Below are positions 42,770 through 49,103 of a stretch of DNA of 64,000 nucleotides, one piece after another. How positions within the stretch are numbered: position 1 is the stretch's first letter; the number at the start of each line of letters is the position of its first letter. Where the stretch lies: positions 53,278 to 117,277 of IMG/VR virus record IMGVR_UViG_3300025759_000062. The stretch is one strand, 5' to 3'. Source of the DNA: a virus. The position numbers and the translations under genes were made by a program. Under the pieces are notes generated by a model. The model had not been told where the DNA came from. It ran no database searches and saw nothing but the letters and a program-made list of their open reading frames with translations.

Positions 42770-43174
42770 TTACTTTCCCCATTTATTACGGTGAACTAGC
42801 ATAGAGATGATTGAATAGTTAGACAGATCAGTCCACGAATCTTCAAGACTCTCATTGTTGGGCTCAACTTGGTTGTTGACGATATTCAAGATGCGTTGGA
42901 TCTTGTCATTCATTCTAAACCATAATCCCATTAGACTCAACTGACGGTTCTCTGGTTTTTCTGTTCCTTTACCAAGAGTTATATTCTCTGGTCCGTAATC
43001 TAATTGCTTTCTGCAGAATAGCTCATACTGTTCCTGCTGAATCTTTTTAAACTCTGTAGTTGTTACGGGATACTTGCTCTCACAAATAGAAACAGGGCTG
43101 TGTATTCCGTACTCAGCTGCTGGATCTTCTTGTAGGTCACTTAATGGATGACCAAATGGTTCTACTTTACTCAT
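42770..43174 (-). CDS. DUF1599-like (nucleotide-modification associated) protein
   Basis: A 134-residue protein with CRKQLDYGPENITLGKG, LMGLWFRMNDKIQRI and DSWTDLSNYSIISMLV. This matches the pattern of DUF1599 / nucleotide modification associated domain 1: a helical domain related to MazG-type pyrophosphatases, common in phages with roles suggested in nucleotide pools or base modification. It is the last gene of the long leftward operon, with a MazG-like gene in the same module. Exact activity unknown. Confidence 0.65.
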   Translation of the reverse strand: MSKVEPFGHPLSDLQEDPAAEYGIHSPVSICESKYPVTTTEFKKIQQEQYELFCRKQLDYGPENITLGKGTEKPENRQLSLMGLWFRMNDKIQRILNIVNNQVEPNNESLEDSWTDLSNYSIISMLVHRNKWGK

Positions 43175-43175
43175 A

Positions 43176-43493
43176 TTAATATTTATTTATTTGTTTAGAG
43201 AGTTTCTGTAAAAGCTCCTCATCCTGTACATATAGGACCAGCTCTTCAAGTAGTTCTTTCATGAACGTCTTAGACTTTTGCTTTGAGATTTGATAATTAA
43301 CTCTTTCTACCTGGTAAAGATGGTAAGCTTCTTCTGAAGTGTTTTTCAACTTCTCATAATATTTAGTGAGACGTGCGTCAATCTTTCTACTTCTATCTAT
43401 ATTAGTGATAGTGGGAAAAGCTTTATGCAGCTCATCAATCCGGCCCTTTAAATATTGGACCTCCATAAGTTTATGTATTTCCTGTTCTGTCAT
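43176..43493 (-). CDS. Helical protein of unknown function
   Basis: A 105-residue, charged, almost wholly helical protein (KIDARLTKYYEKLKNTSEEA, LLEELVLYVQDEELLQKL) that may form coiled coils. No family recognised. It overlaps the methylglyoxal synthase gene by 4 nt (ATGA) and precedes the DUF1599-like gene by 1 nt, so it belongs to the same operon. Confidence 0.6.
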   Translation of the reverse strand: MTEQEIHKLMEVQYLKGRIDELHKAFPTITNIDRSRKIDARLTKYYEKLKNTSEEAYHLYQVERVNYQISKQKSKTFMKELLEELVLYVQDEELLQKLSKQINKY

Positions 43494-43867
43494 ATTTTAG
43501 TTTTTAAATACTTTACCAGGTAACTGGCCGTTCTATAATTTGTTGCAAGAGGTACATTATATACATCACACAATCTCATTAACATACTAATATCAACATC
43601 ATGCGGGTGTTTATCTAATGGGTCTCTCATAAAGATAACAAGATCAATTTCACCTTCAGTAACTAATGATGCTATTTGTGCATCTCCACCAAGCGGTCCT
43701 GACTCCACACCTCTTACATTGTTTATACCTGCGTGTGTTACATGTCTTCCGGTAGTTCCAGTACAAATGATATTTATACCTTCCCTATTAAAGAAAGAAA
43801 GTCTCTTTGATACAAAAGCAACCATATCTGCTTTTTTGTTATCATGTGCTATTAGTGCTATATTCAT
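43490..43867 (-). CDS. mgsA: Methylglyoxal synthase
   Basis: Expected reaction: glycerone phosphate (DHAP) to methylglyoxal plus phosphate (EC 4.2.3.3), in the cytoplasm. The 125-residue product covers the whole small domain. Family motifs occur in order: IALIAHDNKK (His8, Lys12), CTGTTG (36-40, phosphate loop), SGPLGGDAQI (Asp62, catalytic base), FMRDPLDKHPHDVD (Asp82, His89, Asp92). Spacings between Asp62, Asp82, His89 and Asp92 equal those of Asp71, Asp91, His98 and Asp101 in E. coli MgsA. E. coli MgsA is about 152 residues; the phage form lacks only the end extensions. Related domains occur in PurH and carbamoyl-phosphate synthase, but the TGTTG and GGD motifs favour MgsA. Tightly coupled to its neighbours. 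Confidence 0.9.
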   Translation of the reverse strand: MNIALIAHDNKKADMVAFVSKRLSFFNREGINIICTGTTGRHVTHAGINNVRGVESGPLGGDAQIASLVTEGEIDLVIFMRDPLDKHPHDVDISMLMRLCDVYNVPLATNYRTASYLVKYLKTKI

Positions 43868-43977
43868 TTTTTAATTGGTCTTTTAATTAAACATTTAGGG
43901 CAAACCTTAGTCATTCTTAAACCAGGTGGAATAGGCTCTTTACACATAGTGCATTTATTCCATTTGTCTTTTTCCAT
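43864..43977 (-). CDS. Tiny zinc-ribbon protein (37 residues)
   Basis: The product begins MEKDKWNKCTMCKEPIPPGL and contains KVCPKCLIK, giving two CxxC pairs 15 residues apart, a probable zinc ribbon. Its TGA overlaps the mgsA start (ATGA) and its start lies within the end of the upstream 61-residue ORF, which supports operon coupling. Function unknown; a DNA- or protein-binding role is possible. Confidence 0.65.
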   Translation of the reverse strand: MEKDKWNKCTMCKEPIPPGLRMTKVCPKCLIKRPIKK

Positions 43978-44140
43978 TGATAATTCTATTAAATTGAATG
44001 TTGACGGCCTTCCAATATCTAAGTAGTATTTTAGATTCTATATTTTCTGCAAAATATATTAGCTGTGTTAGATGTTTTTGTCCATCTATAGCTCCATGGT
44101 TATTTAGTATTTCAACTGCTTGTTGTTTTTCTTCTGTCAT
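43955..44140 (-). CDS. Small protein of unknown function
   Basis: A 61-residue protein (MTEEKQQAVEILNNHGAIDG, then a helical YFAENIESKILLRYWKAV). It overlaps the start of the zinc-ribbon ORF by 23 nt in another frame. No family recognised. Support comes from operon position and protein-like composition only. Confidence 0.5.
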   Translation of the reverse strand: MTEEKQQAVEILNNHGAIDGQKHLTQLIYFAENIESKILLRYWKAVNIQFNRIINGKRQME

Positions 44141-44159: not shown

Positions 44160-44211
44160 AGGAAGGGACCACCAGAAAATGCAAGAAACCGGTGGCATTG
44201 GTTCCCTTCCT
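44160..44211 (-). other. Long intergenic hairpin within the leftward operon
   Basis: AGGAAGGGA (44160-44168) pairs with TCCCTTCCT (44203-44211), extended by CCACC (44169-44173, less perfect) with GGTGG (44191-44195). No T run follows on the transcribed strand, so RNA processing or control of the downstream gene is more likely than termination. Confidence 0.5.
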
Positions 44212-44215
44212 TATA

Positions 44216-44302
44216 CTATCTACGTTTACTTCTACCTCCAAATATAGTAATACCTATAATAATCCAGAGTATGGTTAATATCATTTCTAAAAACCAACTC
44301 AT
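44216..44302 (-). CDS. Tiny membrane peptide (28 residues)
   Basis: The product MSWFLEMILTILWIIIGITI continues to a GGRSKRR end: one transmembrane helix with a positive C-terminus. Its ATG overlaps the preceding TGA (ATGA), so it is translationally coupled. Function unknown. Confidence 0.55.
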   Translation of the reverse strand: MSWFLEMILTILWIIIGITIFGGRSKRR

Positions 44303-45562: not shown

Positions 45563-46396
45563 TTAAAAGATATATCTGATTGTATTAAGACTAAAATATT
45601 TACTATAAATAGACTTAAATTCAGAAAGTAATCTTGATTTGTGGCTCAAAGGATATCTCATTACACCACTTTTGTTCTTTACTTCTGAACTATATTTCAT
45701 AAGTTCCTGAGCTTCAGCTGATGATCTAACCATTTGAAATCTATGATTAGTGAGTGCAATAACTTCACACTTATTCTCACCGGCTATCTCTTTGACTTGT
45801 TTAAATAGATTATCATATTCTTCTTTCCATCCTGGATAAAAGATCAGAGGACTGTAATTACAATGTACTTCCCAACCCAATGCTTTAAGCCGGTTAATGT
45901 CATGTATTCTGCTTAAGATACTTGACATCTTAGGTTCAAGTACATCAGAATACTTTTGAGGCATAAGGCTTACACGTACTCTAGGTTTCTTATTAAAACT
46001 ACTGACGTCTAACGTTAGTAATCCTGGATACTTAGTAGCCATAGTACTATTAAGTTGGGGGTGATCATCATACCTTTTAAGATAATCTATCAATGGTTCT
46101 GGTAAATGTTTCTGCATTAAGACTAAATCAGTGTTACATGCAATATCTACCATAGTATATATAGGGTCTTGTTGATCTGGTACTTTAACAAAGGTCTTTT
46201 CCCATTCAACAACAGACTGAAATATATCATCTACGTTTGTATTCACGTAAACTCTCTTGTCATTATACCTGGACATATAACAATAAGTGCTAACACATCC
46301 TCCAAAGCAACCATAAATTAGGTTAGGAGCAATGCAGTTAGCACTATTGTTATTGTCTTTAGTTACAAGAGTTTTAGTTCTCTGCTTTTTAATCAT
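45563..46396 (-). CDS. Spore photoproduct lyase-like radical SAM protein
   Basis: A 277-residue protein aligning along its length with spore photoproduct lyase (SplB), which reverses a thymine-dimer lesion using SAM and a 4Fe-4S cluster. Landmarks: GCFGGCVSTYCYMSRY (Cys30, Cys34, Cys39), DIACNTDLVLM (Cys87, at the place of H-donor Cys141 in Bacillus SPL), RVRVSLMPQKYSD, LEPKMSSILSRI, CNYSPLIFYPGWKEEYDNLF and LTNHRF. The cluster motif is CX3CX4C instead of CX3CX2C: two residues are added before the last Cys. SplB is about 340 residues; the N-terminal part is shorter here. The role is probably repair of UV damage in phage DNA, though another radical reaction is possible. It overlaps the preceding small gene by 8 nt. 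Confidence 0.8.
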   Translation of the reverse strand: MIKKQRTKTLVTKDNNNSANCIAPNLIYGCFGGCVSTYCYMSRYNDKRVYVNTNVDDIFQSVVEWEKTFVKVPDQQDPIYTMVDIACNTDLVLMQKHLPEPLIDYLKRYDDHPQLNSTMATKYPGLLTLDVSSFNKKPRVRVSLMPQKYSDVLEPKMSSILSRIHDINRLKALGWEVHCNYSPLIFYPGWKEEYDNLFKQVKEIAGENKCEVIALTNHRFQMVRSSAEAQELMKYSSEVKNKSGVMRYPLSHKSRLLSEFKSIYSKYFSLNTIRYIF

Positions 46397-46591: not shown

Positions 46592-46891
46592 TTAATCTTT
46601 TACAAATTGACCATTAACCATTTTACCTGTACGTTTAGCAATTACATTATAGGCTGATTCAAGACACTCTTCTAATTTGAGTCCTTGCATTTTAGCCTGA
46701 ATGATCAGGGTGACCATAATATCACCCATAGCATCAATGACTTCTTCACGGTCATCTGCGTTGATTGCTGTACATAGTTCTGTACATTCTTCTAAAGTTT
46801 TAAGAGCTTGGGCCATTGGTGTGGCTTTATCCAAGATTCCTTTTTCTTGTGCCCATTCTTCAACGGCACATTCTAATTCAAAATAATCCAT
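46592..46891 (-). CDS. MazG-like nucleoside triphosphate pyrophosphohydrolase
   Basis: Start at ATG 46891, which follows the TAA of the upstream small gene by one base; a TTG at 46948 inside that gene is less likely. The 99-residue product has the MazG signature: TLEECTELCTAI (ExxE pair) and EEVIDAMGDIMVTL (ExxD pair) that bind Mg2+ and NTP. Such enzymes hydrolyse dNTPs or ppGpp; phage MazG proteins are thought to clean or reshape nucleotide pools. It fits with the nrdAB, UDG and DUF1599-like genes in this genome. Confidence 0.8.
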   Translation of the reverse strand: MDYFELECAVEEWAQEKGILDKATPMAQALKTLEECTELCTAINADDREEVIDAMGDIMVTLIIQAKMQGLKLEECLESAYNVIAKRTGKMVNGQFVKD

Positions 46892-46892
46892 G

Positions 46893-47066
46893 TTATCTAC
46901 CTGGTATGTTTTTAATGTTGTCTTGTTTATTGATCCTATGAAGACCAAGTTTTTTATTTAAGGGAAGCACATATTCCTTACAGTAATCCCAATCAGTAAA
47001 AAACCGATGGTTTACCCCATCATCTGTCATATCCTTCCATGCTATTTTTGCTACCCAATTTTGCAT
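46893..47066 (-). CDS. Small protein of unknown function (57 residues)
   Basis: The frame runs from ATG 47066 (MQNWVAKIAWKDMTDDGVNH) to TAA just before the MazG-like start, and begins right after the polymerase stop at 47068. Composition is protein-like, with FFTDWDYCKEYVLPLNKKLG. No family recognised. It fills the whole gap between two firm genes. Confidence 0.65.
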   Translation of the reverse strand: MQNWVAKIAWKDMTDDGVNHRFFTDWDYCKEYVLPLNKKLGLHRINKQDNIKNIPGR

Positions 47067-47067
47067 A

Positions 47068-49059
47068 TTAAAATAGAGTTAGTTGATTGCTGCTAACATT
47101 CATAATATTATCTATCTCTTGTTCTATAGCCTCCAGATAATAAGCTTTATTGATATTATACGTCTCCCATTTTGGTTCAACCTTAAGTGTATTAAACACT
47201 GTTTGTAACCATTGGCCTGACTCTAATTGTATTTCTCTTGCATCTTTCTTATTTACTTTAATAATCTTGACGCCAGATTTAGAAATATAATATCTGTTTA
47301 TCTTCTGAAGATCTTCTTCTACATATTGTTGATCTTTGATATACTTAGCAACTTGCTTCCAATCACCTTTAGATTTACCACCTATGCAATAATCTAATAT
47401 ATTTTTATTCTCTTCAAGATAGTCTTGCGGCATCTTGTCATGGATAAAATAATTAAATATTGCTTTAGGTATAATCAATTTAGACTTGTTCTTATGTAAT
47501 TGTAAGCCATAGAAGTCAAATCTACCTTTTAGTTTTACAGGAGCAAATAAGAACTTATCATTTTCTACTTTAAATTTATAATGAGGATTCTTACTTCTTA
47601 TATCCCGCCAGGTAGTAATATCTACTTGCTTATAATTATTAAGACCTATGTAATTATTACAACCTGCAGATACAAGCTTCTGATACTCATCATGTTCTAA
47701 CTGTAGATTAGTGAGGTCTTCCCATTCTTTACATATAGACATATATTCATCTACATATTCTCTTGGAATCTTAGTTTCTAAACCATCTGTATTATGCATA
47801 ATAGCAATAGCATTTGGTATACGCTCCATGATCATTTCATAAAGCATCATAAGACTAAGCTGACCGTTAATTGTAATTCTCATAGTTAGCTCAGGATCAT
47901 AGAAGAAACTATTTCTATCATTGCTGAGACCGAAAGTTGAATTAAGAATAATCTTATAGACATAGTTCATAGGATTACTCTTTGGTATCTTCTTTCTCTC
48001 TTCAAAGAACCATTCATATTGATCACAGAATTCTTCTGCTGGAAAATGTCCTGGTGCCCACTTGTTTCTAATAACAAGATTAGGATAGAAACTGGTAACA
48101 TCTGATGACATAATAACTGAGTCTTTATCAGAAGTATATATACCATTAACATTAGCACCGTGTACACCACCCACACCAAAGTCTGTCTTCACTCCTTTAT
48201 ACGTAACAGAATACTTGAAAGCACCTTTTAGATTCTCAGGATTCAACTCCACTGCTTTAAATCTATTAAGCAACTGATTAAACTCTGGTGATACAAACTT
48301 TATATATGGAAGTACAATATCATCAAACTTAATTACATTCCTGTGAGTTCTCATTTGTTTAAGGTCTCGTTTTGGAATGTTTAGTTTTTCTGACATATAG
48401 TAAGCAAACAGTTCTTTACTAATACGTGGTTCACTAGCACTGTAGAGATTAATACCATATGTATTTGTAAGTTCTTTCCTTAGAGCAATTAGATCTTTAG
48501 ACCTGTTAAATATTTCTTTGGTTGAACGTACATCATTGATATTATATTCAAGTATAGTATCAATCTCTTCTAGTGTAGTTATTTCTGTATCATGATGTAT
48601 AGGCATGTCAAGCATATTATCCCAATCCATACTATACTGAATCCATTTTAAGCTGGATCTTTTAGCAGGATTATCCCAATGATGCATTTTAAATAGATCA
48701 ATTTGACCTATACACATTTTCCACTGTGGATAATCATGAAACTCTTTAGCATCACTACGGGCAATACATTTAGCAGCATACTGATATATAATGCCAGCTA
48801 TTTCACCAGCACTTAGATTTTCCCAAAGTTCATAATTCTCTATGATATAGTGTGTGATTTGTGCATCAAACGCTAAACCATTATAAGAAATATGCCACTC
48901 CCGGTTATCTGTATTTTGTTTTAAGAAATCTATGAAATCATCAAAGTCATTACGCAGATCATGAACAACAAAGACTTTTGTTTCATTAGTCTTATAATGT
49001 TCAAACACTGCAGTAAAGCAATTCTTTAATGTCTCATAGTCCATTACCCAGTGATTCAT
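47068..49059 (-). CDS. Family B DNA polymerase with 3'-5' exonuclease
   Basis: The replicative polymerase. The start is set at ATG 49059 (MNHWVMDYETL); the TTG at 49083 lies in the upstream terminator. Length 663 residues, compact for PolB. Exonuclease: Exo I MDYE (Asp7, Glu9), Exo II SYNGLAFDAQ, Exo III YNINDVRSTKE. Polymerase: motif A SSDVTSFYPN (about residue 320), motif B KIILNSTFGLSND (about 370), motif C MHNTDGLE (about 425), where the usual YGDTDS is replaced by HNTDG, as in some phage PolB enzymes. No TPR-1/protein-priming insertion is obvious. PolB is one of the polymerase types found in crAss-like phages. Followed downstream by small nucleotide-metabolism genes. Confidence 0.92.
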   Translation of the reverse strand: MNHWVMDYETLKNCFTAVFEHYKTNETKVFVVHDLRNDFDDFIDFLKQNTDNREWHISYNGLAFDAQITHYIIENYELWENLSAGEIAGIIYQYAAKCIARSDAKEFHDYPQWKMCIGQIDLFKMHHWDNPAKRSSLKWIQYSMDWDNMLDMPIHHDTEITTLEEIDTILEYNINDVRSTKEIFNRSKDLIALRKELTNTYGINLYSASEPRISKELFAYYMSEKLNIPKRDLKQMRTHRNVIKFDDIVLPYIKFVSPEFNQLLNRFKAVELNPENLKGAFKYSVTYKGVKTDFGVGGVHGANVNGIYTSDKDSVIMSSDVTSFYPNLVIRNKWAPGHFPAEEFCDQYEWFFEERKKIPKSNPMNYVYKIILNSTFGLSNDRNSFFYDPELTMRITINGQLSLMMLYEMIMERIPNAIAIMHNTDGLETKIPREYVDEYMSICKEWEDLTNLQLEHDEYQKLVSAGCNNYIGLNNYKQVDITTWRDIRSKNPHYKFKVENDKFLFAPVKLKGRFDFYGLQLHKNKSKLIIPKAIFNYFIHDKMPQDYLEENKNILDYCIGGKSKGDWKQVAKYIKDQQYVEEDLQKINRYYISKSGVKIIKVNKKDAREIQLESGQWLQTVFNTLKVEPKWETYNINKAYYLEAIEQEIDNIMNVSSNQLTLF

Positions 49060-49081
49060 ACTTGCATTTTTTAATAGTGCC

Positions 49082-49103
49082 AAAAAAAGCCCACAAGGGG
49101 CTT
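49082..49103 (-). terminator. Rho-independent terminator upstream of the polymerase gene
   Basis: On the minus strand AAGCCC (49103-49098) pairs with GGGCTT (49092-49087), loop CTTGT, followed by seven T residues ending at 49082. It separates the 140-residue gene from the polymerase gene 23 nt further on, and would set a lower level of polymerase transcript. Confidence 0.8.

What the first reader, a model, noticed from the sequence alone, without database searches (positions are those of the whole stretch)
43490..43867. Phage-encoded methylglyoxal synthase with all catalytic residues
Asp62, Asp82, His89 and Asp92 have exactly the spacing of Asp71, Asp91, His98 and Asp101 in E. coli MgsA, with TGTTG and SGPxGGD intact. 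I know of no established role for MgsA in phages. It could bypass lower glycolysis to free phosphate, produce a toxic metabolite that alters host growth, or act on another phosphorylated substrate such as a nucleotide-pathway intermediate.
Basis: partly seen in the sequence, partly recalled or inferred. Interest (0 to 1): 0.7.

Follow-up and report, generated by a model that had tools for sequence, protein, structure and literature searches.

The report
Phage methylglyoxal synthase on crAss-like phage
A crAss-like virus of bacteria carries an intact-looking copy of the metabolic enzyme methylglyoxal synthase, which belongs to a widespread family passed mainly among T4-like phages and probably drains sugar phosphate and frees phosphate in the infected cell.

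Summary
The 125-residue protein at 43490-43867 (minus strand) is a standard methylglyoxal synthase (MgsA) by NCBIfam model, PDB sequence match, predicted fold and residues; all fifteen checked active-site and phosphate-binding residues are present. It is not a PurH or CarB domain. It is also not a one-off: at least 310 IMG/VR contigs encode relatives. Of 56 viral sequence clusters, 54 form one mainly phage-borne branch, next to the short MgsA of Bacteroidota, and the catalytic residues are invariant in all 165 viral rows examined. Close pairs show dN/dS of 0.03-0.09. At least 24 of 66 mgsA-bearing viral records tested carry a T4-type capsid gene. The window's virus (117 kb, crAss-like) is the only crAss-like carrier found. 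Its near-syntenic relatives lack mgsA and hold other small genes in the same slot, so it is recently gained cargo. Most likely it makes methylglyoxal and phosphate from DHAP during infection. The benefit (phosphate release and triose-phosphate drain to feed nucleotide synthesis) is inference. Two virome surveys mention viral mgsA in one line each; I found no study of it. Interest is moderate: a known enzyme, but a little-noticed, apparently old phage lineage with a testable metabolic role.

The parts
43490..43867 (-). mgsA: methylglyoxal synthase, 125 aa
   Evidence: NF003559 155.5 bits; PDB MgsA 7e-32; model pLDDT 89.4, TM 0.89-0.92 to the closest MgsA structures; active-site residues invariant in 165 viral rows
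43176..43493 (-). Downstream 105-aa gene of unknown function, overlapping mgsA by 4 bases (ATGA). Also in crAss-like relatives without mgsA and in a T4-like record, so not a dedicated partner
42770..43174 (-). 134-aa protein, weak DUF1599 (nucleotide modification associated domain 1) match, phrog_1485; same direction
43868..43986 (-). Small zinc-ribbon-like ORF directly upstream (reads MEKDKWNKCTMCKEPIPPGLRMTKVCPKCLIKRPIKK; approximate bounds). Also in L208 and L209, where a small membrane-peptide-like ORF follows it in place of mgsA
   Evidence: sequence read
46592..49083 (-). MazG-like pyrophosphohydrolase (46592-46948) and DNA polymerase (47068-49083) of the same-direction replication region

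Best explanation
The gene encodes a genuine methylglyoxal synthase that converts DHAP to methylglyoxal plus inorganic phosphate. Shown here by computation: family, fold, active site, strong purifying selection among related phage copies, viral residence, and gain by this crAss-like lineage as cargo. Inferred: the enzyme is active and is made with the replication genes, because it lies in the same-direction array as DNA polymerase and MazG and shares a 4-base overlap with the next gene. Inferred and least certain: it drains triose phosphate and returns phosphate while the phage makes DNA, so glycolysis and nucleotide synthesis do not stall for lack of free phosphate; the methylglyoxal is left to host detoxification.
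For: NF003559 over cut-off; PDB and Foldseek matches to MgsA; fifteen active-site and phosphate-contact residues invariant in 165 viral rows, some contigs counted twice; dN/dS 0.03-0.09 in the five closest pairs of the set with dS 0.3-1.5, median 0.13; 54 of 56 viral clusters in one mainly viral branch even when bacterial MgsA was used as bait; neighbours in various phages include IMPDH-domain and thymidylate synthase genes; MgsA removes phosphate from DHAP (PMC11852113).
Against: No activity or expression data. No conserved partner gene across phages: neighbours differ between lineages, so the role is not fixed by context. PhoH was found in only 7 of 21 records, which neither supports nor excludes a phosphate role. 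About half of Bacteroidota genomes sampled already have mgsA (98 of 198). Methylglyoxal is toxic, and no glyoxalase was found in 21 phage records.
Confidence: 0.5

Rival explanations
1. Active MgsA whose useful product is methylglyoxal itself: a toxic aldehyde that slows host growth or translation, or hinders competing phages.
For: No glyoxalase in 21 phage records, so the aldehyde is not removed by a recognisable phage enzyme. Active site intact.
Against: Methylglyoxal also damages DNA and protein the phage needs (general knowledge). Absence of glyoxalase fits the metabolic reading equally well, with the host clearing it.
Confidence: 0.2
2. Carbon-flow valve: with host biosynthesis shut off, MgsA routes DHAP past lower glycolysis to lactate and pyruvate or to propanediol, regardless of phosphate.
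For: The reaction bypasses lower glycolysis (general knowledge); about half of sampled Bacteroidota lack mgsA, so the phage could add a branch.
Against: No other central-carbon gene was found beside mgsA in the neighbour clusters annotated; not searched for systematically.
Confidence: 0.2
3. The phage lineage has shifted to another phosphorylated substrate or altered regulation.
For: Lineage-specific residues: K21, R22, L23, F25, F26, N27, D90, V91, Y111; D90 and V91 lie between catalytic H89 and D92.
Against: All catalytic and phosphate-binding residues are kept in 165 rows; full-length match to MgsA model and fold. The short C-terminus without E. coli R150 is shared with short bacterial MgsA, so it is not special.
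Confidence: 0.08
4. Host DNA mis-assembled into a viral contig.
For: At least one hit in the phage collection is of that kind: MT835478 around its mgsA holds MinD and RodA-like genes.
Against: Here mgsA lies inside a continuous crAss-like gene array syntenic with relatives; its nearest relatives are other viral contigs at up to 83 percent against at most 66 percent in bacteria.
Confidence: 0.01

Closest known systems
Bacterial MgsA (E. coli 1b93, B. subtilis 6f2c, Thermus 1wo8 and 2x8w)
   Same: Fold, length of core, all active-site residues
   Different: 40 percent identity to E. coli, 50 percent to B. subtilis; no E. coli-like C-terminal tail; lineage-specific residues around positions 21-27, 90-91 and 111
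Short MgsA of Bacteroidota (Saprospiraceae, Flavobacteriales and others)
   Same: Closest bacterial group, 53-62 percent identity; same short form
   Different: Outside the viral branch in both trees; two bacterial rows, L085 and L088, do lie inside it
Viral mgsA reported as an auxiliary metabolic gene (PMC8066274 Lake Baikal; PMC11252502 brine pool)
   Same: mgsA on viral scaffolds; the Baikal scaffold was assigned to the virotype Caulobacter phage Cr30
   Different: One-line mentions; in the passages read, no lineage, structure or role and no crAss-like carrier
MGS-like domains of carbamoyl phosphate synthetase and PurH
   Same: Same superfamily fold
   Different: TM about 0.6-0.7 and 0.56 against 0.9 for the closest MgsA, 15-22 percent identity

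Membership tests
Methylglyoxal synthase (EC 4.2.3.3) | Score over curated family cut-off | tested here: met
   NF003559 155.5 against 84; TIGR00160 146.4 against 146.9, half a bit short
Methylglyoxal synthase (EC 4.2.3.3) | Catalytic and phosphate-binding residues H19, D20, K23, T45, T47, T48, S65, G66, D71, D91, H98, D101 | tested here: met
   All present; invariant in 165 viral rows
Methylglyoxal synthase (EC 4.2.3.3) | MgsA fold over full length | tested here: met
   TM 0.89-0.92 to 6f2c and 1wo8
Methylglyoxal synthase (EC 4.2.3.3) | DHAP to methylglyoxal plus phosphate activity | not testable with these tools
   Needs protein
Methylglyoxal synthase (EC 4.2.3.3) | Hexamer and inhibition by phosphate | not testable with these tools
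   Single chain modelled; E. coli R107 kept, R150 absent as in short bacterial MgsA
PurH or CarB MGS-like domain | Closer in sequence and fold to those than to MgsA | tested here: not met
crAss-like phage (order Crassvirales) for the carrier | Matching terminase, portal, capsid | tested here: met
   phrog_6681, phrog_6547, phrog_11589; capsid matches phage csAssE-Sib, Cellulophaga phi4:1 and phi17:2, Leptolyngbya phage Lbo-JY46
Phage auxiliary metabolic gene | Host-type metabolic gene held by viruses under selection | tested here: met
Phage auxiliary metabolic gene | Effect on infection | not testable with these tools
   No infection data

The most novel reading that the evidence does not exclude
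An old phage-borne lineage of methylglyoxal synthase, distinct from its bacterial relatives by fixed residues beside the active site, is adapted for infection (for example less held back by phosphate, or with shifted substrate) and moves between unrelated phage groups.
Probability: 0.15. Interest if true: 0.7.

Novelty: new member of a known kind. Interest (0 to 1): 0.45.

Why it matters
Phage genes that redirect host metabolism are best known from photosynthesis, nucleotide and phosphate pathways (general knowledge). A widespread phage methylglyoxal synthase would place DHAP and a toxic aldehyde among the control points of infection in Bacteroidota-type hosts, and it can be tested with a simple enzyme assay. 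The apparent exchange between T4-like and crAss-like phages also shows metabolic cargo crossing very different virus groups.

Tried and rejected
PurH or CarB domain: rejected by model, fold and tree. Host contamination: rejected for the window; accepted for MT835478 in the phage collection and suspected for the rest of the hits (unannotated records). Dedicated operon partner: the 105-aa neighbour occurs without mgsA in relatives and the neighbours differ between phage lineages. Phage-encoded detoxification: no glyoxalase in 21 records. Phosphate-gene company: PhoH in 7 of 21, not informative. Loss of the C-terminal R150 as a phage adaptation: also absent in short bacterial MgsA. Separate captures of the long MgsA type: one Bacteroidota long-type query found none in IMG/VR, but that search is narrow. 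The first tree was biased because viral rows were recruited by similarity to the window; it was repeated with bacterial bait.

Full report
What is there. The ORF at 43490..43867 on the minus strand encodes 125 residues. NCBIfam's methylglyoxal synthase equivalog NF003559 scores 155.5 bits against a cut-off of 84; the stricter TIGR00160 scores 146.4 against 146.9. The best solved-structure matches are all MgsA, to 7e-32. The E. coli sequence used for numbering is identical to PDB 1b93. A predicted model (mean pLDDT 89.4) matches the closest MgsA structures at TM 0.89-0.92, carbamoyl phosphate synthetase MGS domains at about 0.6-0.7 and PurH at 0.56.

The carrier. The window is bases 53278-117277 of a 117,277-base viral record. 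Outside the window it has terminase, portal and capsid genes of crAss-like type; the capsid matches phage csAssE-Sib, Cellulophaga phages phi4:1 and phi17:2 and Leptolyngbya phage Lbo-JY46. mgsA lies in a minus-strand array with DNA polymerase, MazG, a spore photoproduct lyase-like gene and DUF932, and overlaps the next gene by four bases.

Spread. IMG/VR holds at least 310 contigs encoding relatives; the best 80 are 66-83 percent identical. The curated phage collection gave only 22 matches under 50 percent, all in unannotated records; the one inspected, MT835478, is bacterial around its mgsA, with MinD and RodA-like genes. No PHROG family matched. So I found no annotated phage isolate with this gene.

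Lineage. A first tree with 49 viral rows and 112 bacterial rows put all viral rows in one branch, support 99/99, with only two bacterial rows, L085 and L088, inside. That set had been recruited by likeness to the window, so I searched again with bacterial MgsA as bait. In the second tree 54 of 56 viral clusters still fall in one mainly viral branch (96/75; 50 of them in a starred branch, 100/92), again with L085 and L088 inside; two viral clusters, L254 and L284, fall elsewhere and may be separate gains. With about 126 columns, deep forks are poorly resolved. L085 lies beside ruvX- and deformylase-like genes in a bacterial contig (my reading of the translations), so a bacterial donor or recipient exists.

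Selection. Fifteen active-site and phosphate-contact residues are invariant in 165 viral rows, with some contigs counted under two locus ids. dN/dS is 0.03-0.09 for the five least divergent pairs and 0.13 at the median of pairs with dS 0.3-1.5. The gene is kept as a working protein.

Which phages. The T4 capsid family Gp23 is over cut-off in 10 of 20 mgsA-bearing records and 14 of 50 records in a second set; over both sets that is 24 of 66 distinct mgsA-bearing records besides the window, and many of the others are fragments. The crAss-like portal was found only in the window's record and in that of L209, which has no mgsA. One T4-like capsid is 69 percent identical to that of Flavobacterium phage immuto, which fits Bacteroidota hosts.

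Gain by the crAss-like phage. Relatives L208, L209 and L211 keep most of the flanking genes at roughly 65-98 percent identity, with a few more divergent, but have no mgsA in the slot, nor elsewhere in their records, including the 117,829-base record of L209. In L208 and L209 a small zinc-ribbon-like ORF is followed by a small membrane-peptide-like ORF and then the 105-aa gene; in the window mgsA stands in place of that small ORF. The simplest reading is acquisition from a T4-like phage, since T4-like L003 is in the window's own sub-branch in the first tree. Loss in the three relatives is the alternative.

How it probably works. MgsA removes phosphate from DHAP to give methylglyoxal (PMC11852113). 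From general knowledge, bacterial MgsA acts when sugar phosphates pile up and free phosphate is low. Rapid phage DNA synthesis could create that state. Neighbours in several phages are nucleotide genes (IMPDH domain, thymidylate synthase), which is suggestive only, because phage genomes are rich in such genes. No glyoxalase was found in 21 records, so the aldehyde would be left to the host. Enzyme identity I hold at about 0.9; the specific benefit at well under 0.5; the stated confidence covers both.

What is new. Two virome papers list viral mgsA in one line each, and the search for methylglyoxal with phage infection listed nothing on the subject. The parts I did not find described are the size of the family, the mainly phage-borne branch, its T4-like home and the presence in a crAss-like phage. 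The enzyme and the idea of phage metabolic genes are known.

Noticed in passing
window about 44165-44225, minus strand: Bulged hairpin upstream of the mgsA slot, present in L208, L209 and L211, with a conserved AACCAA bulge and some paired changes in the outer helix; the inner helix pairs by eye in each sequence but was misregistered in the four-sequence alignment. No Rfam match.
   Followed up: partly
window 45563-46396: Spore photoproduct lyase-like gene (PF20903, E 1.7e-17) kept at 85-90 percent in crAss-like relatives; unexpected in a phage.
   Followed up: no
L085:1824-2198 and L088:6001-6363: Phage-type MgsA in contigs binned as bacteria (L085 beside ruvX- and deformylase-like genes): possible donor or phage-to-bacterium transfer.
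   Followed up: partly
window 43176-43493; L165:11677-11991; L212:10001-10315: 105-aa gene of unknown function shared by crAss-like phages and phages of other types, in T4-like L165 and in L212 within about 1.5-2.5 kb of mgsA.
   Followed up: partly
L219 (MT835478.1 in the phage collection): Record filed as Bacteriophage sp. appears to be bacterial chromosome around its mgsA (MinD, MinE, RodA-like genes), a collection contaminant.
   Followed up: partly
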